DNA from: Fidelibacterota bacterium
GTDB taxonomy: Bacteria > Marinisomatota > Marinisomatia > Marinisomatales > UBA1611
DNA: 8,710 nucleotides
Direction: 5' to 3'
Assembly (NCBI GenBank): GCA_002694025.1
Contig: NZKX01000140.1
Span: 1-8,710, forward strand
Below the pieces are notes generated by a model that saw nothing but the letters and a program-made list of their open reading frames with translations, was not told the origin of the DNA and ran no database searches. How positions within the stretch are numbered: the first letter of the stretch is position 1; the number at the start of each line of letters is the position of its first letter. This document shows positions 35 to 8,604 of this stretch, in pieces. The translations under genes and the position numbers were made by a program.

Positions 35-625
35 CTATTTGCTCACTCTTTTTCTTAAATTATAAAAAAAAAGATGTAGTCTTTCAAGATTTTTATGGTA
101 ATACATTCTATTTGCATCATGCAAAACCACAACACCCATGTCTGTAATTAAATCAAAGGATTTTTTTATACATTCTAACCTAGCTTGGCCATCAATTAAT
201 ATAAAATCATAAGGTGCATGATTATCTGGAAATTCAATGTAATCAATGAGGTCCTCATGTGAACCATCATTATTGTTATCAGACCACGGGTAATTATTTG
301 GAGGAATATATTTTATATTCACTCCTGAATTAAAATTCATTTGGTTAATCTTATTAGCCCAATCAGAGCAATGTTCTATTGCTAACCAATTTGCATCTTT
401 TAACAAAAGTTTTGGTAAATATATTGTACTATATCCAGAACCCCACTCTAAACAATTTTTGGGGTTTAAATTTCTAATGATCTCCTCCAGAATCATTATT
501 TCCCGATTCTTCATAAAAGGTTTATATCTTATATTTTTAATTTTTATACCAATTCGAGAATCCTCAAAATTCTTAATTTGTTCTCTAATAATTAAAGAAA
601 ATAATTTCGAACGTATTTTCAACAT
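35..625 (-). CDS. Class I SAM-dependent methyltransferase (small, glycan-locus type)
   Basis: This 196-residue cytoplasmic protein looks like a compact Rossmann-fold methyltransferase. Motif I is seen as CLEWGSGYST (residues 58-67), the acidic residue expected to hold the SAM ribose as E84 in IEHCSDW, a later strand as YDFILIDGQAR (139-149), and LHDANR (168-173) near the C-terminus. The middle segment (about 107-135) is rich in Asn, Asp and Pro and may form part of the acceptor site. No signal peptide or membrane segment is visible. The ATG directly follows the TAA of the FkbM-family gene with no bases between and no clear Shine-Dalgarno, so translation is probably coupled. Its neighbours suggest methylation of a sugar or other surface-glycan building block. 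The substrate cannot be read from the sequence. The fold is clear, the role is inference. Confidence 0.8.
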   Translation of the reverse strand: MLKIRSKLFSLIIREQIKNFEDSRIGIKIKNIRYKPFMKNREIMILEEIIRNLNPKNCLEWGSGYSTIYLPKLLLKDANWLAIEHCSDWANKINQMNFNSGVNIKYIPPNNYPWSDNNNDGSHEDLIDYIEFPDNHAPYDFILIDGQARLECIKKSFDLITDMGVVVLHDANRMYYHKNLERLHLFFYNLRKRVSK

Positions 626-1348
626 TTATTTTTTTTCTAGACAAAAGGTGATATTTAAATTATCATTTATAAGTTCTTTATAACCTTTTTGTTTTAATCT
701 ATGGATAATTTTCTTCGTCTCATCCTCAAAATCTTTTCCTTTAAGCTTCAAATCAAATTCAACACATAAATATGTTGGTTGAATCTGATTATCTAACATA
801 TTATTTAACACACGTATTTCAGCTCCCTCTATATCAAGTTTAAGTAAGTCGATTTGCTCATGTTTTTTTTCAGTCATTAGACTTTTAATGGTACAAGTCT
901 CAATTAAGTCATAATCATTGCCAAACATTCCGTTCACCAAGGTTTGAGAAACATTATTTATATTATTTTGTTTATAAAATTTTAATTTCCCAATAGAATC
1001 CCAAAGACCTTTTTCTTCTAATGAAATTTTTGAAAAATCAATATTCATTTTTTTGATTTTTTTTTCATAATCTTTTTGGATATTTCCTGAAAACAACCAA
1101 TCCCCTGATGCATAGTACCTAATCAACTCTTGAAGATGGACTAAAGAACGCGGCGTTGGATCTATTAATAAAATATTACAATTGAAATACGATTGTAAAT
1201 GCAGATCAAAAGAAATATCCTCTCCAGCGCCAGCACTGTAAACAATACTATTTGAATCTAATTGAATATCCTTGGGAATAAGCCAACCACCATAATTTGT
1301 ACCAAACTTCCTTACTGGTTTCGATGCAAACAAGTTTCTTAATAACAA
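626..1348 (-). CDS. FkbM-family methyltransferase
   Basis: This 240-residue protein has the FkbM layout: an N-terminal KFGTNYGGWLIP segment (14-25), SAM motif I as VYSAGAGEDISFD (36-48), the post-II acidic motif LLIDPTPRS (60-68), a central SQTLVNGM stretch (134-141), the hallmark LLKLDIEGAE (168-177) and VEFD (196-199). FkbM proteins are SAM-dependent O-methyltransferases, first known from macrolide synthesis and very common in surface-polysaccharide loci, where they are assumed to methylate sugar hydroxyls. The chosen start is a TTG. The frame is open only 10 codons further upstream and has no ATG or GTG there. An AAGGA sequence lies about 12 bases before the TTG, a rather long spacing. It is the first gene of a leftward operon and abuts the next methyltransferase gene exactly. 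Family is secure, substrate unknown, start moderately sure. Confidence 0.88.
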   Translation of the reverse strand: MLLRNLFASKPVRKFGTNYGGWLIPKDIQLDSNSIVYSAGAGEDISFDLHLQSYFNCNILLIDPTPRSLVHLQELIRYYASGDWLFSGNIQKDYEKKIKKMNIDFSKISLEEKGLWDSIGKLKFYKQNNINNVSQTLVNGMFGNDYDLIETCTIKSLMTEKKHEQIDLLKLDIEGAEIRVLNNMLDNQIQPTYLCVEFDLKLKGKDFEDETKKIIHRLKQKGYKELINDNLNITFCLEKK

Positions 1349-1626: not shown

Positions 1627-2931
1627 ATGAAAGTTCATCAACCTCAAGGCAAACTAGGAGTATTAATCCCTGGCATGGGCGCGGTCGCAAGCACATTTAT
1701 TTCTGGTGTTTTAGCAATAAAAAAAGGTTTAGCAAAACCTATTGGCAGTATGACTCAAATGGGTACTATGCGACTAGGAAAGCGAACAGAAAATCGTGTC
1801 CCCTTGATTAAAGATTTTGTTCCTTTAGCAAAGCTCGAAGATTTGGTTTTTACAGGCTGGGATATTAATCAAGAAAATCTTTTTGATATTAGCATTAGGA
1901 ATGGAGTCCTTGAAAAAAGCCTTTTAAACCATCTAAAAACAGATCTTGAAAAAATAAATGTCCTCAAAGCTGTTTTTGACAAAAATTTTGTACGTCGTTT
2001 ATCTGGAGGCTGGATTAAAACTGGTAAAAACAAAATGGATTTAGCAAAACAAGTTGAAGTTGATATTCAAAATTTTAATAAAATAAATAATATCCAATCA
2101 AACATTATGATATGGTGCGGTAGTACTGAAATATTTTTAGAACCATCAGAAGTTCATTCATCTCTTCCAAAATTTGAAGAAGGGTTACTGAATAATGACC
2201 CTAAAATTTCACCAAGTATGATTTATGCATACTCAGCATTAAAAATGGGTATCCCTTTTGCTAATGGATCTCCAAATCTATCAGTCGATATACCTGCTTT
2301 AGAACAATTAGCAATAAATGAACAAACGCCAATTTGCGGTAAAGATTTTAAAACAGGACAGACACTTATGAAAACAATAATTGCTCCTGGTTTAAAAGCT
2401 AGACAAATAGGTATAAATGGTTGGTTTTCTACTAATATATTAGGTAACCGTGATGGTGAGGTTTTAGATGATCCTAGTGCTTTTAAAACAAAAGAAGAAA
2501 GTAAACTTGGTGTTTTAGATTATGTACTCCAACCAGATATTTATCCTGACTTATATAAAGACCTTTATCATAAAGTTCGAATTAATTATTATCCACCTCA
2601 TGGTGATAATAAGGAAGGGTGGGATAATATTGATATATTTGGATGGCTTGGATATCCAATGCAAATCAAAGTTGATTTTCTTTGTAGGGATAGTATTTTA
2701 GCCGCTCCCATTGTCCTTGATCTTGTCTTGTTCCTTGATTTAGCAAAAAGAAGTGGAATGAAAGGAATCCAAGAATGGTTATCCTTTTATTTTAAAAGCC
2801 CTATGACTCTACCTGAATTATATCCTGAACATGACCTTTTTGTTCAACTAGCAAAACTAAAAAATACATTGCGCCATATTATGGGTGAAAAATTAATCAC
2901 CCATCTTGGTTTAGATTATTATGAGGGTTGA
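1627..2931 (+). CDS. ino1: Inositol-3-phosphate synthase (myo-inositol-1-phosphate synthase)
   Basis: This 434-residue cytoplasmic enzyme is expected to convert D-glucose 6-phosphate to 1D-myo-inositol 3-phosphate in an internal NAD-dependent oxidation, aldol closure and reduction. The N-terminal NAD-binding loop is seen as LIPGMGAVASTF (13-24). Conserved catalytic-domain segments follow: GIPFANGSPNLSVDIPAL (208-225), the lysine-containing GKDFKTGQTLMKT (238-250), FSTNILGNRDG (267-277, the counterpart of the yeast NxLGNNDG region), KEESKLGVLDYV (289-300) and CRDSILAAP (353-361). Length fits bacterial members and is shorter than the roughly 530-residue eukaryotic enzymes. The start is fixed by a strong Shine-Dalgarno. 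It leads a four-gene operon, and its stop lies just before the start of a cytidylyltransferase gene. No inositol monophosphatase follows, so the phosphate is probably kept and the product activated with CTP. Assignment is firm, fate of the product is inferred. Confidence 0.95.
   Translation: MKVHQPQGKLGVLIPGMGAVASTFISGVLAIKKGLAKPIGSMTQMGTMRLGKRTENRVPLIKDFVPLAKLEDLVFTGWDINQENLFDISIRNGVLEKSLLNHLKTDLEKINVLKAVFDKNFVRRLSGGWIKTGKNKMDLAKQVEVDIQNFNKINNIQSNIMIWCGSTEIFLEPSEVHSSLPKFEEGLLNNDPKISPSMIYAYSALKMGIPFANGSPNLSVDIPALEQLAINEQTPICGKDFKTGQTLMKTIIAPGLKARQIGINGWFSTNILGNRDGEVLDDPSAFKTKEESKLGVLDYVLQPDIYPDLYKDLYHKVRINYYPPHGDNKEGWDNIDIFGWLGYPMQIKVDFLCRDSILAAPIVLDLVLFLDLAKRSGMKGIQEWLSFYFKSPMTLPELYPEHDLFVQLAKLKNTLRHIMGEKLITHLGLDYYEG
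2923..2927 (+). promoter_or_regulatory. Ribosome binding site deciding the cytidylyltransferase start
   Basis: GAGGG lies inside the last codons of the inositol-3-phosphate synthase gene. It is nine bases before the TTG at 2937, adjoining the TTG at 2928 (too close), and 15 bases before the ATG at 2943 (too far). This favours initiation at TTG 2937, with termination and reinitiation coupled across the junction. Confidence 0.5.
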
Positions 2932-2936
2932 TAAGA

Positions 2937-3665
2937 TTGAAAATGATATTTATTGCTGCTGGTAAAGGTTCCCGATTATCGAACATAACAAATGGAAATC
3001 ATAAAGCCTTAGTTAAAATTAATAATAAATCATTAATTGATATCTTATTCCAAAATTGTTTGGAAATAGGTATTAATGAAGTTATTGTAGTAACCGGTTT
3101 TAAGAAGCATCTAATCACAGAGCATACAAAAGCATTAAAGACTAATATTAATATTGAACTTATACATAATTTAGATTGGAAACTTCCTAATGGTCTTAGT
3201 GTTTTAACTGCAAAAGATTTAATTCCAAAAGGTGATGATTTCTTATTATCTATGTGCGACCACTATTATTTTCCTAGCTTATTAGATTTAGTTAAAAAAA
3301 GCAATCTGAAGAACACTTTAGTTAATGTTGGAATTGACTATAATCTAGAAAGAATATTTGACATAGATGATGCTATGAAAGTTAACATCAATAAAAATAA
3401 CAACCTGATTAAATCGATGGCAAAAACATTAACTACTTATAATGCCGTTGACTGTGGTGTTTTTAAATGCAACTATGATTTTTTTTCAATTTTAGAAGCA
3501 GCGAAAGAAAATGATAAATATTCTTTATCAGATGCCTGCAATTTACTTATCAAAAATAAGAAGCTTGGCGGTATAAATATCTGTGATAATTTTTGGATAG
3601 ATATAGACACTCCAGATTCATTAAACCAATGTAATATATATCTTAAAAATTCTAATTTATTCTAG
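2937..3665 (+). CDS. Inositol-1-phosphate cytidylyltransferase-like nucleotidyltransferase (CDP-inositol synthesis)
   Basis: This 242-residue protein has the sugar-phosphate nucleotidyltransferase fold: IAAGKGSRL at the start (6-14), K23, NGLSVLTAKD (85-94) and the metal-binding CDHYY (107-111). Its distal half, with DDAMKV (144-149), KTLTTYNAVDCGVF (163-176) and WIDIDTP (220-226), closely recalls the cytidylyltransferase domain of the archaeal IPCT enzymes. Those make CDP-inositol from CTP and inositol-1-phosphate for di-myo-inositol phosphate. Here the domain stands alone, without the membrane phosphotransferase half of the bifunctional enzymes. Its position directly behind inositol-3-phosphate synthase supplies the expected substrate. 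The GAGGG ribosome site favours the TTG at 2937, while ATG 2943 would shorten it by two residues and TTG 2928 would overlap the previous stop by four bases. Related phosphocholine or glycerol-phosphate cytidylyltransferases are alternatives. The fold is certain, the inositol substrate well supported but inferred. Confidence 0.82.
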   Translation: MKMIFIAAGKGSRLSNITNGNHKALVKINNKSLIDILFQNCLEIGINEVIVVTGFKKHLITEHTKALKTNINIELIHNLDWKLPNGLSVLTAKDLIPKGDDFLLSMCDHYYFPSLLDLVKKSNLKNTLVNVGIDYNLERIFDIDDAMKVNINKNNNLIKSMAKTLTTYNAVDCGVFKCNYDFFSILEAAKENDKYSLSDACNLLIKNKKLGGINICDNFWIDIDTPDSLNQCNIYLKNSNLF

Positions 3666-3685
3666 TCCATAATTAGTTAATAAAA

Positions 3686-4738
3686 ATGAATATTTACTAT
3701 TATGCAAACCAAGTCTACGAGTTTTCATTTTCAAGACCGATATATGAAAGATTAGGAGGAACTTTTATAGTCAATAAATATAGTCGATATTTAAGATTCA
3801 AATTGTATTTACGAAATGGAAATAGTTTCCCAGACGAAAATAAGACATTTTTAAACACTCCTCCTTTAACTATTAGAGATATCACAAAACCTATTAAGCT
3901 AAATGGCGCAGTTATATCTCAATCAAATACAACTATAAACTGTGAAGGTAATAATATTATAAAAATTTTCATGGGTCATGGAGCTGGAGATAAAAAATAT
4001 GGAGGTACACCAACACCTTTAGAAACCTATGATTATCATTTCATTTCCGGCAATAAACACCTCCAAAAACTAAAGGATCTCAATGTAAAAATCGCTCGAA
4101 AAAAACAAATAAAAATCGGATATCCTAAATTTGACGCTTATATCAACAATCAAATAAATAAAAAAGAATACCTTAATCATCTTGGAATTATAGATAAAAA
4201 TAGAAAAAATATTCTTTATGCACCAACATGGAAATGGGGCAATGGCACGCTCCAAAAATATTTTTATAAATTTTGCAATGAACTAACTAACGAGTTTAAT
4301 CTTATTGTAAGACCACATTTTTTTGAAAGAAAATATATCCCTTTATTCAAGGCATGGGCTAAATTGAACAGAATAAAGCATGTTTATTTTTCTAATCCCG
4401 CAAATATTTTAATAAATACTACAATGAATGATTTTGCAGTTTCTGATGTTTTAATTAGCGATACTTCCTCAATACTTTATGAATACCTTATAACCCTTAA
4501 ACCTATTATTATAGCGGAATCAAATTATTTAGATCTTCATGATATGCCAGATAATATGAATATCAATAACCTAGCAAAAAAATTTAATAATTATAATTCA
4601 AATATCATAAAACTTGTATATGATACTTTAGATTGTAAAAATACAAAGAATGATTATAAGGCAATGTTAAATAATTGCTTTTATTTTAATGATGGGCATT
4701 CTACCGAAAGGGCCATCGAATTTCTTTCCTCATTATAA
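3686..4738 (+). CDS. TagF-family CDP-alcohol phosphotransferase, possibly using CDP-inositol
   Basis: This 350-residue protein matches the catalytic domain of the CDP-glycerol:poly(glycerophosphate) glycerophosphotransferase family, a GT-B-like fold that moves an alcohol-phosphate from a CDP carrier to an acceptor. Visible landmarks are IFMGHGAGDK (94-103, catalytic-type H98), GYPKFD (145-150), ILYAPTWKWG (176-185), VRPHFF (208-213, second catalytic-type H211), SDTSSILYEYL (258-268, donor-site Asp and Ser) and the C-terminal DGHSTERA (336-343). It lacks a large extra N-terminal domain, has no signal peptide or obvious membrane helix, and probably works at the cytoplasmic face of the membrane. 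It follows the cytidylyltransferase gene by 20 bases without a clear Shine-Dalgarno. Known members use CDP-glycerol or CDP-ribitol, and no gene for either donor is in this window. The neighbouring genes suggest CDP-inositol instead, which is inference. Whether it adds one unit or polymerises cannot be told. Confidence 0.85.
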   Translation: MNIYYYANQVYEFSFSRPIYERLGGTFIVNKYSRYLRFKLYLRNGNSFPDENKTFLNTPPLTIRDITKPIKLNGAVISQSNTTINCEGNNIIKIFMGHGAGDKKYGGTPTPLETYDYHFISGNKHLQKLKDLNVKIARKKQIKIGYPKFDAYINNQINKKEYLNHLGIIDKNRKNILYAPTWKWGNGTLQKYFYKFCNELTNEFNLIVRPHFFERKYIPLFKAWAKLNRIKHVYFSNPANILINTTMNDFAVSDVLISDTSSILYEYLITLKPIIIAESNYLDLHDMPDNMNINNLAKKFNNYNSNIIKLVYDTLDCKNTKNDYKAMLNNCFYFNDGHSTERAIEFLSSL

Positions 4739-4753
4739 AGATAATTTGTAATT

Positions 4754-5794
4754 ATGAATCAATCTTTAACAAATCCTTTTATTTCTGTTATCATTAGATC
4801 ATACAATCGTTTAAAATATGTAATTGAATTAATTAATCGATGTTTGAGGCAAGATTATGACAATTTTGAGATTATAATAGTTGACCAAAGTGATTTAAAT
4901 CATTGGAATAAATACAAAACAAAGCTCTTTTCGATAGACTCAAAAGTTCGTTTAATTAGAGCCAGGCCTCAAGGCTCCGCTGGAGCAAGAAATTTAGGTG
5001 TGTTTGTTGCTCACGGAGATGTTGTCCTTTTAATGGATGATGATGATTTACCTTTGAATAATAAATGGATTTCTTCACATGCGAAAAATTATCAAGACCC
5101 TTCTTGCATTGGTGTCTCGGGCCGCTACATTCACGAAGTGAATGAAACCAATCGGTATAAAAATAAAAACTTTGCATACGAACGCTGCTTGAGTTATTCA
5201 TTTTTTTTAAGAGGCCGGGACTTTACGGGAATAGATAAAATCAAAAAACCTGTGGAATGGCTACATGGTGCTAATTCTTCAATTAGAAGAAGGTATGTTA
5301 TTGAACTTGGAGGATGGTACCCCTATGTAAATAATTTCGACGAACATTCTTTTTGCTTCAAATTACAAAAGGTAATGAAAAAAGAAGAGTATCTTATGTT
5401 TGACCCTGAACCAATAGTGCTCAGAAGATTTAATATTCCTGGCGGATTAGGAAAAAGATATCTTCCACTTTCTCAATTATTAAAAAACCAATTATTGTTT
5501 TATCATAGGGTAGTAGCAAAATATTACCCACTTCGTTTTTATTCACTTTATCCAATATTTAATCTTTATTCATTTAGATATATAATTAGATGGTTTCGAA
5601 CTTTTTCGTACTTTGACAATAACTTTTGGTTTAAATGGTTTCATAAAAAAAATGCTTTACGTTTATATTTTTTTCAAGAATTTATTAAATACCCATTTTT
5701 AGTTGTTCATTCCTTTTTTCAAAAAAGACCAAAATGGAATTCTCCTTTACATATATCAGATGATATATATTCTGAATATAAACAAGAACTCTAA
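4754..5794 (+). CDS. Family 2 glycosyltransferase
   Basis: This 346-residue protein is a GT-A fold family 2 glycosyltransferase using a nucleotide-sugar donor. FISVIIRSYNR (9-19) opens the nucleotide-binding domain, IIVDQSD (41-47) follows, then GSAGARNLG (74-82) and the metal-binding acidic cluster LLMDDDDLP (92-100). The acceptor side has WLHGANSSIRR (169-179) and GGWYPYVNNFDEHSF (186-200), where DE stands in the place often held by ED. From about residue 245 to 325 the chain is very rich in Tyr, Phe and Trp with many Arg and Lys, which suggests binding to the membrane surface, though no clean transmembrane helix is seen. It is the last gene of the inositol operon, 15 bases after the TagF-like gene. 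It probably builds the glycan or linkage unit that receives the alcohol-phosphate. Sugar specificity is unknown. Confidence 0.88.
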   Translation: MNQSLTNPFISVIIRSYNRLKYVIELINRCLRQDYDNFEIIIVDQSDLNHWNKYKTKLFSIDSKVRLIRARPQGSAGARNLGVFVAHGDVVLLMDDDDLPLNNKWISSHAKNYQDPSCIGVSGRYIHEVNETNRYKNKNFAYERCLSYSFFLRGRDFTGIDKIKKPVEWLHGANSSIRRRYVIELGGWYPYVNNFDEHSFCFKLQKVMKKEEYLMFDPEPIVLRRFNIPGGLGKRYLPLSQLLKNQLLFYHRVVAKYYPLRFYSLYPIFNLYSFRYIIRWFRTFSYFDNNFWFKWFHKKNALRLYFFQEFIKYPFLVVHSFFQKRPKWNSPLHISDDIYSEYKQEL

Positions 5795-5810: not shown

Positions 5811-6764
5811 TTAAAGTAAACTCCAACCTGATAGTTCCTGAAAATCTAATATTGTCTTTTCCCATTTTTTATTACTAATGGAAGCAACAGCATTTTCTAA
5901 GACCCATTTTCTGGGATTATAATCGTTATTATTAAGAGATTTAATAAATAATCCAGTCTGATGAATTAATTCCATTTTATTTATTATTTTAATACCAAAA
6001 TAACTTTTATATATTTTATTTAAATCTAGTAAGTAAACTTCTTTTGGTCTGTTTTCATCTTTCATTAAACCCACATTTGTAAACATGCATGGAAGATTCA
6101 TTGCCATTGCTTCATTACAAACAATACTATTCCCTTCATATTTACTTAAATGGATAAAGGCTTTTGCTTTCCTCATCCTTTCTGGAACATCCTCAGGTTG
6201 ACAATTTAATGATTCAAAGTTCCATTCTGGAAAAGCCGTTTCTATTATTGGAAGAAGTGTAGATCCTTTATGTCTAGTTCTTGCATCATGGAGTATTAAA
6301 CAAGAATTATCGTTTTCTAACTTTCCATCAAAAGTTTCAGTATCTATTTGATGATATATTACATGTTTTGTTTGATTCCCGTATAACTCTTTAAAAGTTG
6401 AGGCTATCCAATCAGCACAAGCTATCCAAATTATATTTTCTCGTTTTGACGCTTTCATCTGTGCTTTTTTTAATTTTCTATGACCTGAGGATTTTGTAGC
6501 AAGGTATTTAATTGCGCCTACACCATGCTGAAATCCAATCACAGGAATATTTTCAGGAATATCAGAAACCATTTCATTAGTACAAATTACAGGGATTCTC
6601 TCTCGCAATATATATTCTAGATCTAAATTCTTTGGAGTCATGTACTCAACTCTGTCGAATATTGATTTTAATCCTCTCGCAAATGTTTGTACCCCTCCTG
6701 TTGTTGTTAAAGGGTTTTTATCATTATAGTAAATTATTCTAATAGGAATTTTTTTATTTTTCAT
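5811..6764 (-). CDS. GT4-like (GT-B fold) glycosyltransferase
   Basis: This 317-residue protein appears to be a short retaining GT-B glycosyltransferase. Near the N-terminus TTGGVQTFARGL (21-32) is the usual glycine-rich acceptor-domain loop. GFQHGVG (77-83) supplies a histidine in the typical place, ARTRHKGS (161-168) resembles the basic donor-phosphate site, and KYEGNSIVCNEAMAMNLP (208-225) corresponds to the E-x7-E donor-binding motif. It is shorter than the usual 350-400 residues. I chose the ATG at 6764, four bases after the ABC transporter stop and preceded by a weak AGAG. An in-frame ATG at 6791 would add nine residues overlapping the ABC gene but has no ribosome site. It is the last gene seen in its operon and converges on the inositol operon with 16 bases between. 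It probably adds a sugar to the glycan or lipid handled by the adjacent exporter; donor unknown. Confidence 0.82.
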   Translation of the reverse strand: MKNKKIPIRIIYYNDKNPLTTTGGVQTFARGLKSIFDRVEYMTPKNLDLEYILRERIPVICTNEMVSDIPENIPVIGFQHGVGAIKYLATKSSGHRKLKKAQMKASKRENIIWIACADWIASTFKELYGNQTKHVIYHQIDTETFDGKLENDNSCLILHDARTRHKGSTLLPIIETAFPEWNFESLNCQPEDVPERMRKAKAFIHLSKYEGNSIVCNEAMAMNLPCMFTNVGLMKDENRPKEVYLLDLNKIYKSYFGIKIINKMELIHQTGLFIKSLNNNDYNPRKWVLENAVASISNKKWEKTILDFQELSGWSLL

Positions 6765-6768
6765 ATCA

Positions 6769-8604
6769 TTAATCTCTAAGTTGATTGTCATAAAGAAATT
6801 TATAATATTTATTTAAATGGATAAGTTCTTTATGAGTACCTTGTTCAATAATATTTCCGTTTTCTAATACTATTATGTTGTCTGCTTTTCTAACTGTAGA
6901 TAACCTATGTGCAATTACCAAAACCGTACGATCAGCCATCAAAGTTTCTAGCGCTTCTTGAACCATACGCTCAGATTCTGAATCCAATGCAGATGTAGCT
7001 TCATCTAAAATCAATAATTCAGGGTTTTTAAATAAGGCTCTTGCAATAGCGACCCTTTGTTTTTGACCACCTGATAATTTTACACCTCTTTCACCAACTA
7101 GGGTATCAAGTCCAAACTCTAAATCATTTATAAAGTCAATCGCGTTTGCAGCTTTTATACATTCAATTAGCTTATGTTCATCTGCAATTTCATTTCCATA
7201 CAAAATATTTTCTCTGATAGATGTATTTAACAGAATAGTTTCCTGAGTTACTATACCCATTATCCCACTTAATGAAGCAATCGAAAATTCTTTAATATTT
7301 CTTCCATCAATAGAAATGATGCCTTCATAAATATCAAAAAATCTAGGAATTAAATCTGCTATGGTAGATTTTCCAGCGCCACTTGATCCTACTAAGGCTA
7401 CGGTATTACCCTTTGAAATTTCAAAATTTATTTTATTGAGTTTAAATGAACCAGTATCATAAGCAAAACTAACATTCTCAAATTTTAAATTATTTTTTAG
7501 AGTCTGTATGTTTTTTATTCCAGAGTCTACTATTTGAGGTTTTTCATCTAAAATAGTAAAAATCCTTTCAGCAGATGCAAAACCATTTTGTAATACTATA
7601 TGTACATTACTTAAAGATCTTATTGGGCCTAGCATAGAAAACAATAAAAACATGAAGCGTAGAAAGTCTTCAGAGGAAAGAGATGCATTATTTATTGCTG
7701 ATGACCCACCTAACCACAGTAATAAAACCGCCATAGAAACACCAATAGATTCAATGATAGGAGATGACATCAACCGCAACTTTGATGATCTAAATTGAAG
7801 ACTGAAATATTTCCATGACTCTGCATTAAAACGCTCTGTCTCTTTTTCACTCATCGCAAAGGCTTTGACTATTCTTATTGAATATAACGTTTCAGTGATT
7901 ATACTTAATATTCCACCAATTTGCTTTGTATTCCTTCTTGCCTTGCGTCTGATACTTCGGCCTATAACTTGCATTATAAACTGAGAAAAAGGAATAATGA
8001 ATAAAGCTATTAACATTAATTTCCAGCTTATTATAAATAACAATAATGAAATTGTAAAAATATTAATAGGCTCAACAATAATTTTTTGAAATGTAGCACC
8101 AATAGACTGATTTAATGCTCCAACATCATTCATAATAATTGAAGATAAATCGCCAGATCTTCTTTTATAAAAGAAAGCTAACGACATTTTTTGAAGGTGA
8201 GCATAAAGACTATTTCTAAACTGTGTAACTATTCTTAATTGAACATAAGACATTGATAAATTTTTTAAATAGAGAAAAATATTTTTCAAAATAAAAATAG
8301 AAACAATTGTAAAGCATAACACTTGCAATGTTTCAAGGTATGATTCACGTAAAATAAAACTATTAAAAATTATTTTCAGTTTTTGATTAATTGTGGTGAC
8401 CTCTAGATTAGTTAGAGTGGTTTGCTCAAGAATTAAGCTATCAAAATCCGCTAGCACATTATTGATCAAAGAAGCAGTTAACCAAATTGAAATGCTATTA
8501 AAAAAAACAAAAAATAACCCACACAATAAAGAGATAACAATAAAAAACCATTCAGGTTTAATGAACTCATAAATTTTTTTTAAATCTACTTTTTTATTCT
8601 TCAT
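6769..8604 (-). CDS. MsbA-like ABC exporter (fused permease and ATPase half-transporter)
   Basis: This 611-residue inner-membrane protein is a type I ABC exporter half-transporter expected to act as a homodimer. The N-terminal domain has about six helices (roughly 18-50, 92-113, 165-190, 192-214, 284-303, 312-330) and a fairly long polar loop (about 52-90) between the first two. The nucleotide-binding domain is complete: Walker A GSSGAGKST (406-414), Q-loop Q454, signature LSGGQ (510-514), Walker B LLILDE (530-535, catalytic E535), SALD (538-541) and H566. Members include MsbA, which flips lipid A core, and exporters of lipid-linked oligosaccharides, drugs and peptides. Glycosyltransferase neighbours favour a glycolipid substrate, but peptidase or toxin-export functions cannot be excluded. 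Its ATG overlaps the upstream acetyltransferase stop as ATGA, implying translational coupling, and it ends four bases before the GT4-like gene. Confidence 0.92.
   Translation of the reverse strand: MKNKKVDLKKIYEFIKPEWFFIVISLLCGLFFVFFNSISIWLTASLINNVLADFDSLILEQTTLTNLEVTTINQKLKIIFNSFILRESYLETLQVLCFTIVSIFILKNIFLYLKNLSMSYVQLRIVTQFRNSLYAHLQKMSLAFFYKRRSGDLSSIIMNDVGALNQSIGATFQKIIVEPINIFTISLLLFIISWKLMLIALFIIPFSQFIMQVIGRSIRRKARRNTKQIGGILSIITETLYSIRIVKAFAMSEKETERFNAESWKYFSLQFRSSKLRLMSSPIIESIGVSMAVLLLWLGGSSAINNASLSSEDFLRFMFLLFSMLGPIRSLSNVHIVLQNGFASAERIFTILDEKPQIVDSGIKNIQTLKNNLKFENVSFAYDTGSFKLNKINFEISKGNTVALVGSSGAGKSTIADLIPRFFDIYEGIISIDGRNIKEFSIASLSGIMGIVTQETILLNTSIRENILYGNEIADEHKLIECIKAANAIDFINDLEFGLDTLVGERGVKLSGGQKQRVAIARALFKNPELLILDEATSALDSESERMVQEALETLMADRTVLVIAHRLSTVRKADNIIVLENGNIIEQGTHKELIHLNKYYKFLYDNQLRD

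What the first reader, a model, noticed from the sequence alone, without database searches (positions are those of the whole stretch)
1627..4738. Possible CDP-inositol pathway feeding a TagF-family phosphotransferase: an inositol-phosphate surface polymer
Seen: three consecutive co-directional genes with a -6 to 20 base spacing encode inositol-3-phosphate synthase, a nucleotidyltransferase with IPCT-type signatures, and a TagF-family protein. Known: IPCT makes CDP-inositol for di-myo-inositol phosphate in hyperthermophiles, using a membrane CDP-alcohol phosphatidyltransferase partner. TagF-like enzymes build glycerol- or ribitol-phosphate polymers. Inferred: here the partner is swapped for a soluble TagF-like enzyme, giving an inositol-phosphate-substituted glycan or poly(inositol-phosphate), an inositol analogue of teichoic acid. 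The window holds no inositol monophosphatase and no CDP-alcohol phosphatidyltransferase, so neither free inositol nor phosphatidylinositol is the obvious end product. I do not know of a described system with this combination.
Basis: partly seen in the sequence, partly recalled or inferred. Interest (0 to 1): 0.82.

Follow-up and report, generated by a model that had tools for sequence, protein, structure and literature searches.

The report
Inositol-phosphate surface-tagging gene trio
Uncultured bacteria of the Marinimicrobia group keep three neighbouring genes that appear to make inositol phosphate, activate it as CDP-inositol and attach it to a cell-surface glycan, a pairing of enzymes that I did not find described and that can be tested directly.

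Summary
Genes 1627-2931, ~2943-3665 and 3686-4738 encode inositol-3-phosphate synthase (INO1), a nucleotidyltransferase (NT) whose nearest solved relatives are CTP:inositol-1-phosphate cytidylyltransferases (IPCT), and a single-domain TagF-like transferase keeping both catalytic histidines. The trio is conserved: of 199 genomes drawn from one phylum, 23 carry this stand-alone NT; TagF is the next gene in 22 and INO1 the previous gene in 19. Elsewhere the NT family is fused to a DIPPS-type CDP-alcohol transferase, fused to INO1, or beside INO1 alone. So the NT is a probable IPCT and TagF its swapped partner. The TagF pocket has the glycine of ribitol-type, not glycerol-type, enzymes. Half of 24 loci lie near an MsbA-like exporter. 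Best reading: an inositol-phosphate substituent added to an LPS-core-like glycan. Nothing was measured; the donor is better supported than the acceptor. I found no paper describing the combination in the library searched.

The parts
1627..2931 (+). INO1: inositol-3-phosphate synthase, makes L-myo-inositol-1-phosphate from glucose-6-phosphate (inferred from family)
   Evidence: PF07994/PF01658 over cut-off; best PDB relative 7nwr, inositol-3-phosphate synthase, 1.2e-154; 83% identical to the copy in L024
2943..3665 (+). NT: IPCT-like nucleotidyltransferase, predicted to make CDP-inositol from CTP (ORF listed from TTG 2928; start ATG 2943 or TTG 2937 likelier)
   Evidence: profile search best hits IPCT 2xme 2.8e-19 and 4mnd 1.7e-18; AlphaFold model pLDDT 94, best PDB fold 4jd0 T. 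maritima IPCT, TM 0.85; IPCT-type residues
3686..4738 (+). TagF-like phosphopolyol transferase, single GT-B domain, predicted to transfer inositol phosphate from CDP-inositol to a glycan; H98 and H211 catalytic
   Evidence: PF04464; model pLDDT 83 with TagF as the top 11 Foldseek rows and, by VIA-align, TagF in the top five rows, then two capsule multienzymes and TarL; H98, H211, D259, S261, S262 in 28 of 28, G101 in 28 of 28
4754..5794 (+). GT2 glycosyltransferase, likely same operon, may build the acceptor glycan
   Evidence: PF00535; homologues at E<=1e-20 in 3 of 24 relative loci (L024, L011, L020)
5811..6791 (-). GT4-type glycosyltransferase, probable part of the glycan cluster
   Evidence: PF00534/PF13692; homologues at E<=1e-20 in 2 of 24 loci, L024 and L011
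6769..8604 (-). MsbA-like ABC exporter (best NCBIfam model TIGR02203 MsbA, below its cut-off; HepA model close behind)
   Evidence: 479.5 bits of 602, HepA 458.9 of 725; a homologue lies within 6 kb of the NT in 12 of 24 loci

Best explanation
A three-step surface-modification pathway. (1) INO1 makes L-myo-inositol-1-phosphate. (2) The IPCT-like NT couples it to CTP, giving CDP-inositol. (3) The TagF-like GT-B enzyme, by direct displacement using two histidines, transfers inositol phosphate to a hydroxyl of a membrane-bound glycan, most likely the LPS core, which the neighbouring MsbA-like transporter then flips. Step 1 rests on clear family membership. Step 2 is well inferred. Step 3's chemistry is inferred from the family and its donor from gene linkage. 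The acceptor, and one residue rather than a chain, is the weakest step (I give the LPS-core part alone about 0.45).
For: Linkage: in the 24 nearest loci, INO1 directly precedes NT in 21 and TagF directly follows in 23, although NT identity to the window is only 43-55%. In 199 phylum genomes, 23 have the stand-alone NT: TagF next in 22, INO1 before in 19; of the 5 not used to find the family, TagF is next in 5 and INO1 before in 3. INO1 is present in 20 of these 23 against 23 of 169 genomes without the NT family, Fisher p=1.6e-12, kinship uncorrected and 18 of the 23 found through the NT itself. In 20 of 23 first-set genomes there is exactly one INO1 match and by its coordinates it is the one in the trio. 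NT identity: best PDB profile hits and best fold are IPCT. M109, D111, H112, D137, K166, D175, F179, W223, D225 and D227 are in 40 of 40 IPCT-type rows and R16, K26 in 38 of 38 with letters; A. fulgidus IPCT shares all, while the 7 NT2 paralogues differ at M109, H112, D175, F179, W223 and D225. Partner logic: NT fused to INO1 in L077; a bifunctional IPCT-DIPPS near INO1 in L056 and beside it in 5 of 7 same-phylum loci. TagF: the solved relatives by profile, apart from one chance-level hit, move polyol phosphates; catalytic His pair in 28 of 28; Gly at the position that is Pro in glycerol-P and Gly in ribitol-P transferases (PMC10299916, passages; motif alignment). Glycan context: MsbA-like gene near the NT in 12 of 24; lipid A acyltransferase in L006, GT9 heptosyltransferases in L001 and L015; LpxC in 21 of 23 and KdtA in 22 of 23 genomes.
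Against: No substrate, product or acceptor was measured. IPCT-like sequence does not fix the substrate: CpgD, whose top structural hit was also T. maritima IPCT, uses phosphoglycerate (PMC12275187, passages). The residue count is partly circular: loci L001-L080 were found with two motifs that include D145, K151, D175 and F179, and the rows were a chosen subset. G010, G019 and G095 have NT and TagF but no INO1 match anywhere; all are assemblies of unknown completeness. 12 of 24 loci show no MsbA-like neighbour, so the LPS context is not universal. The pocket Gly is also in 15 of 15 readable TagF paralogues, so it argues against glycerol, not specifically for inositol. In the NT tree the split from NT2 has only 86/85 support, and the trio NTs are not one clade: L110 groups with a Zixibacterium and L108 is unplaced. 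A third PgsA-like CDP-alcohol transferase exists in both genomes examined and could use CDP-inositol instead.
Confidence: 0.7

Rival explanations
1. The NT makes CDP-inositol, but for a lipid or solute made by a CDP-alcohol phosphotransferase elsewhere in the genome (phosphatidylinositol, or di-myo-inositol phosphate); the TagF-like gene uses another donor and is linked only as a surface gene.
For: INO1 plus an NTP transferase plus a CDP-alcohol phosphatidyltransferase is proposed for inositol lipids in Bacteroides vulgatus (PMC9246714, passages). Relatives carry 1-4 PF01066 matches per genome (21 genomes). In G096 and in a Zixibacterium, INO1 sits beside a CDP-alcohol-motif ORF while NT-TagF is elsewhere (Zixibacterium INO1 also).
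Against: Phosphatidylinositol-phosphate synthase model over cut-off in 0 of 23 genomes. In G006 and G023 the 7 CDP-alcohol enzymes checked are 2 PgsA over cut-off, 2 PssA-like (1 over cut-off, 1 just below), 2 PgsA-like below cut-off and 1 with only a weak ClsA match; none matched the IPCT-DIPPS model at E<=1e-5. TagF, not a CDP-alcohol transferase, is the constant neighbour (22 of 23).
Confidence: 0.15
2. The TagF-like enzyme polymerises inositol phosphate, giving an inositol analogue of teichoic acid.
For: The solved relatives TagF, TarL and Cps3D are named polymerases (PMC5974469, passages).
Against: The protein is 350 aa, a single GT-B domain, without the polymer-binding or TPR regions of those polymerases; NCBIfam TarF 45.7 of 550 and TarL 32.3 of 1000. 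The neighbours are LPS-core-like in half the loci, and no capsule export set was seen among the flanking genes scanned, which were a subset.
Confidence: 0.08
3. The NT activates a different alcohol phosphate (for example phosphoglycerate, glycerol phosphate or choline phosphate) and INO1 is linked for another reason.
For: Related cytidylyltransferases use phosphoglycerate, phosphocholine and phosphoglutamine (PMC12275187, passages); three NT-TagF genomes (G010, G019, G095) have no INO1 match.
Against: Linkage or fusion with INO1 in Fidelibacterota, Rhodothermota/Bacteroidota, Nitrospirota and Woesearchaeota. INO1 over cut-off in 31 of 35 other genomes bearing the NT family (35 searched, from 56 loci), against 6 of 14 control genomes. 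IPCT-type residues. TagF pocket Gly instead of Pro.
Confidence: 0.07

Closest known systems
Di-myo-inositol phosphate pathway (INO1 + IPCT-DIPPS) of hyperthermophiles
   Same: INO1 next to a nucleotidyltransferase whose best fold and profile hits are IPCT; the same phylum draw also holds INO1 beside a bifunctional IPCT-DIPPS-like ORF (L111-L114, L116)
   Different: no DIPPS domain and no adjacent CDP-alcohol transferase; a GT-B TagF-like enzyme takes its place
Bacteroides vulgatus-type putative inositol lipid cluster (MIPS, NTP transferase, CDP-alcohol phosphatidyltransferase, HAD; PMC9246714)
   Same: MIPS with an NTP transferase proposed to make CDP-inositol; INO1 here is closest in the PDB to 7nwr, which I recall as the B. 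thetaiotaomicron enzyme
   Different: partner is TagF-like, not a lipid-forming membrane enzyme; surface-glycan rather than lipid genes around it. I did not compare the B. vulgatus sequences themselves
TagF-like capsule polymerases and teichoic acid transferases (TagF, TarL, Cps3D, Bcs3/CroT)
   Same: PF04464, GT-B fold, two catalytic histidines, CDP-polyol donor chemistry
   Different: single 350-aa domain; predicted donor CDP-inositol rather than CDP-glycerol or CDP-ribitol; its own clade apart from the paralogues sampled
CpgD (phosphoglycerate cytidylyltransferase, Caulobacter; PMC12275187)
   Same: IPCT-like cytidylyltransferase feeding an envelope modification
   Different: phosphoglycerate substrate and sphingolipid product; no INO1 partner mentioned in the passages seen

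Membership tests
IPCT (CTP:inositol-1-phosphate cytidylyltransferase) | NTP_transferase fold with IPCT as closest solved relatives | tested here: met
   PF00483 54.5 bits of 21.2; 2xme and 4mnd best of 15 profile hits, 4jd0 fifth; 4jd0 best fold. With the single sequence instead of the profile, ST0452-type sugar enzymes score above 2xme
IPCT (CTP:inositol-1-phosphate cytidylyltransferase) | active-site Arg, Lys, Asp reported for T. maritima IPCT (PMC12275187, passages) | tested here: met
   R16, K26, D111 in all rows with letters (38 of 38, 38 of 38, 40 of 40); equivalence by motif position. These three are also kept by NT2 and ST0452, so they do not discriminate
IPCT (CTP:inositol-1-phosphate cytidylyltransferase) | CDP-inositol formation from CTP and inositol-1-phosphate | not testable with these tools
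   needs enzyme assay
Bifunctional IPCT/DIPPS (NF041135) | curated cut-off and C-terminal CDP-alcohol transferase domain | tested here: not met
   88.8 bits of 580, positions 2-217 of 419 only
TagF-like polyol phosphotransferases (PF04464) | Pfam gathering score and GT-B fold | tested here: met
TagF-like polyol phosphotransferases (PF04464) | two catalytic histidines (H444, H584 in TagF; PMC5974469, passages) | tested here: met
   H98 and H211 in 28 of 28; H211 aligns with H584, H98 by the HG motif
TagF/Cps-type polymerases | additional polymer-binding, TPR or second transferase domains | tested here: not met
   350 aa, one GT-B domain over residues 1-350
Teichoic acid TarF / TarL equivalogs | NCBIfam cut-off | tested here: not met
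   45.7 of 550; 32.3 of 1000
Phosphatidylinositol-phosphate synthase pathway | PIP synthase gene over curated cut-off in the genome | tested here: not met
   0 of 23 relative genomes over cut-off, G010 nearest at 137 of 170; the window's own genome is not held
Inositol-3-phosphate synthase (INO1) | both Pfam domains over cut-off | tested here: met
   the NCBIfam mycothiol-type INO1 model is not met (15.7 of 638), a different subfamily

The most novel reading that the evidence does not exclude
A lineage of Gram-negative bacteria builds a true poly(inositol phosphate), or inositol-phosphate repeat, on its LPS or capsule from CDP-inositol: an inositol counterpart of teichoic acid, made by a minimal TagF acting repeatedly.
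Probability: 0.1. Interest if true: 0.88.

Novelty: new variant of a known kind. Interest (0 to 1): 0.72.

Why it matters
CDP-inositol is known as a donor for solutes and proposed for lipids. A TagF-like enzyme that uses it would extend polyol-phosphate chemistry on cell surfaces to inositol. In one phylum the same IPCT family is paired either with DIPPS or with TagF, which gives a natural experiment on partner swapping. It would also predict a phosphate- and inositol-bearing, negatively charged surface in uncultured Marinimicrobia, with possible effects on phage attachment, metal binding and phosphorus budgets (inference). Each enzyme is small, without a predicted membrane domain, and testable alone.

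Tried and rejected
Phage collection (tblastn) and viral contigs gave no relative of the NT. tRNA scan: none.

Absence of IMPase in the window was tested as evidence and rejected: PF00459 occurs in 23 of 23 relatives and 14 of 14 controls.

The third CDP-alcohol transferase (near kdtA, after an ABC ATPase-like ORF) was considered as the CDP-inositol partner. In the two genomes examined it is PgsA-like, 86.6 and 83.7 bits of 109.1, with PIP synthase at 28.4 and 27.5 of 170; a CDP-alcohol match also lies near kdtA in G019, where no INO1 was found. Not excluded.

The INO1-NT loci in Rhodothermales and Bacteroidetes (L048, L074) were read for a hidden TagF: the next ORFs have no Pfam hit and look repeat-like, and one (P0029) is probably not a gene.

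The reciprocal test (is this TagF type ever found without the NT?) could not be run: the alignment A2 phylum search did not complete.

What was dropped: alignment A1 used the window and 20 of the 27 homologues (a duplicate and six shorter sequences left out); A2 used the window and 17 of 24 loci. NT tree: 48 chosen rows; 2xme and 2ggo are long branches; two Verrucomicrobia rows (L036, L075) were truncated by my cropping, hence 38 instead of 40 at the N-terminal columns. TagF tree: 28 trio and 16 paralogue rows; the trio TagFs of L005 and L010 were left out because contig ends cut them. In L013 only about the last 100 residues of INO1 match, probably a broken frame; it is counted as INO1 in the 21 of 24 but not in the 20 of 23.

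Literature: 10 searches. Twelve papers mention CDP-inositol in one of the five spellings searched: listings seen for all, passages for two (PMC9246714, PMC12275187). PMC5974469 and PMC10299916 were seen in passages only. Subscription journals are largely missing, so 'not described' means not found in this library.
Full report
Observation. The window holds, on the + strand, INO1 (1627-2931), a nucleotidyltransferase NT (listed 2928-3665, start ATG 2943 or TTG 2937 likelier from homologues) and a TagF-like gene (3686-4738), followed after 15 bases by a GT2 gene. Pfam supports all three. On the - strand lie a GT4-type glycosyltransferase and an MsbA-like ABC exporter (best NCBIfam model MsbA, 479.5 of 602 bits), and upstream two methyltransferase-like ORFs. 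Among the 24 nearest loci from genomes, mostly titled Marinimicrobia (Fidelibacterota), the best identities are INO1 83%, TagF 67%, GT2 69%, NT 55%. L024 keeps INO1-NT-TagF-GT2 together with the GT and ABC genes on the other strand.

What the NT is. A profile built from the window and 20 homologues finds A. fulgidus IPCT first in the PDB: 2xme 2.8e-19 and 4mnd 1.7e-18, ahead of sugar nucleotidyltransferases and LicC; T. maritima IPCT 4jd0 is fifth of 15. With the single sequence, ST0452-type sugar enzymes come first and 2xme third. The AlphaFold model (pLDDT 94) matches 4jd0 best. The active-site Arg, Lys and Asp named for IPCT in PMC12275187 (passages) are kept, but they are common to the wider family. 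More telling is a set of residues (M109, H112, D145, K151, D175, F179, W223, D225, window numbering) shared with A. fulgidus IPCT and across six groups of NT rows, the trio among them, but not with the seven NT2 paralogues of the same clusters (D145 38 of 40, K151 37 of 40, the others 40 of 40). This is partly circular, since loci L001-L080 were found with two motifs covering D145, K151, D175 and F179; A. fulgidus IPCT and the bifunctional rows were not. The curated model of the bifunctional Thermococcales enzyme matches only its first half and far below cut-off (88.8 of 580), as expected for a stand-alone domain.

Linkage. A scan of one genome per species gave 82 loci, of which 80 were kept. 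L001-L024 are Marinimicrobia or bacteria without a group in the title: INO1 directly before NT in 21 of 24 (in L013 only its last part matches), TagF directly after in 23 of 24. The misses are L007 (contig starts at NT), L011 and L020 for INO1, and L020 for TagF (2.2 kb away). A second, broader draw of 199 genomes of the phylum separates three tiers: 23 genomes with a stand-alone NT above 185 bits; eight hits at 134-160 bits in ORFs of 438-467 aa; all other listed hits below 86 bits, apart from a further piece of the broken NT in G095. In the first tier TagF is the next gene in 22 of 23 and INO1 the previous one in 19 of 23. Eighteen of these genomes had been in the first set; in the five new ones the figures are 5 of 5 and 3 of 5. 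INO1 is in 20 of 23 against 23 of 169 genomes without the NT family (kinship not corrected). The 20 INO1 matches found among the 23 first-set genomes are single and lie in the trio by their coordinates. Flanking genes differ between loci, for example asparagine synthase (L003), a GH99 glycosidase (L008), PhoX (L018) or MsbA-like, so the trio keeps together where its surroundings do not.

Partner swap. The second-tier ORFs are IPCT-DIPPS-like: 7 of 7 fetched carry the CDP-alcohol transferase motif, and INO1 is adjacent in 5 of 7 (L111-L114, L116). L056 (Nitrospirota) has INO1, a CDP-alcohol transferase and a bifunctional IPCT-DIPPS-like ORF in a row. In 31 of the 56 other loci (30 Verrucomicrobia and L056) a CDP-alcohol motif ORF lies within 1.5 kb of the NT, and the two Verrucomicrobia ones checked match the second half of the IPCT-DIPPS model. 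In a Woesearchaeote the NT and INO1 are one ORF (L077). In Rhodothermales and a Bacteroidetes MAG, INO1 and NT are neighbours and no TagF was found (L048, L074). INO1 is over cut-off in 31 of the 35 other NT-bearing genomes searched (35 chosen from 56 loci), against 6 of 14 controls. The tree places trio NTs with these, apart from NT2, with moderate support (86/85); the trio NTs are not one clade, because L110 joins a Zixibacterium and L108 is unplaced.

What the TagF-like enzyme is. Profile and structure searches return TagF, Cps3D, a second capsule multienzyme (8a0m/8a0c, which I take to be Bcs3) and TarL first; UDP-GlcNAc 2-epimerases follow as a shared fold. H98, H211, D259, S261 and S262 are in 28 of 28 trio enzymes, which form one clade (100/99) apart from 16 paralogues. 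In the Hib enzyme Bcs3 the residue three after the first histidine is Gly, as in ribitol-phosphate transferases, where glycerol-phosphate transferases have Pro (PMC10299916, passages); the trio has Gly in 28 of 28, and so do 15 of 15 readable paralogues. So the donor is probably not CDP-glycerol; inositol is compatible but not proven. The protein is one domain of 350 aa, unlike the multi-domain polymerases (PMC5974469, passages).

Where the product goes. An MsbA-like gene lies within 6 kb of the NT in 12 of 24 loci and was not seen in the other 12, several of which have short flanks. L006 has a lipid A acyltransferase upstream of MsbA and the trio; L001 and L015 have GT9 heptosyltransferases. 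LpxC is found in 21 of 23 and KdtA in 22 of 23 of these genomes. I therefore infer an LPS-core-like acceptor, with limited confidence. Lipid or DIP end products are less likely: no PIP synthase over cut-off in 23 genomes, and among seven CDP-alcohol enzymes of two genomes none matched the IPCT-DIPPS model. An unassigned PgsA-like enzyme near kdtA leaves that route open, and in G096 and a Zixibacterium INO1 itself sits beside a CDP-alcohol-motif ORF.

Known or new. Heaver et al. (PMC9246714, passages) proposed MIPS + NTP transferase + CDP-alcohol phosphatidyltransferase for inositol lipids via CDP-inositol. CpgD (PMC12275187, passages) shows an IPCT-like enzyme feeding an envelope modification with another substrate. 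None of the 12 papers that mention CDP-inositol (listings, passages of two) was seen to pair it with a TagF-like enzyme using it. I call this a new variant of a known kind: known enzyme families in a conserved, apparently undescribed combination. All of it is sequence inference; no activity has been measured.

Noticed in passing
L001, L005, L011, L014, L015, L016, L021, L022, L023, L024 (e.g. L024:5479-8350 minus strand): Further TagF-like genes, in most of these loci with a second nucleotidyltransferase (NT2), sit in the same clusters as the trio; they form their own clades. Substrate unknown; an Fe-alcohol dehydrogenase (L024) or a HAD protein (L015) lies nearby.
   Followed up: partly
G006:C1 about 2677-2680 kb; G023:C84 8510-11433: A third, PgsA-like CDP-alcohol phosphotransferase lies near kdtA, with an ABC ATPase-like ORF directly before it, in these two genomes. 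Its substrate is not evident.
   Followed up: partly
L077:10007-11863: A Woesearchaeote ORF fuses an IPCT-like domain to an inositol-3-phosphate synthase.
   Followed up: partly
L029-L080, Verrucomicrobia: IPCT-like NT convergent with a DGCDGEIAR-type CDP-alcohol transferase ORF in 30 Verrucomicrobia loci: a possible inositol-phosphate pathway in what look like soil organisms from the record titles.
   Followed up: partly
L003:11795-12667, L008:11824-12708: A 290-294 aa protein matching the helical domain of 5-hmdU DNA kinase (PF18723) is encoded directly beside the trio in the two loci scanned.
   Followed up: no
window 35-625 and 626-1348, minus strand: Two adjacent methyltransferase-like ORFs (a sub-threshold Methyltransf_24 match and FkbM), perhaps modifying the same glycan.
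   Followed up: no
L030:3-3253: A Zixibacterium has TagF-like, NT and MsbA-like genes in a row, with INO1 on another contig beside a CDP-alcohol-motif ORF; its TagF belongs to the paralogue clade.
   Followed up: partly
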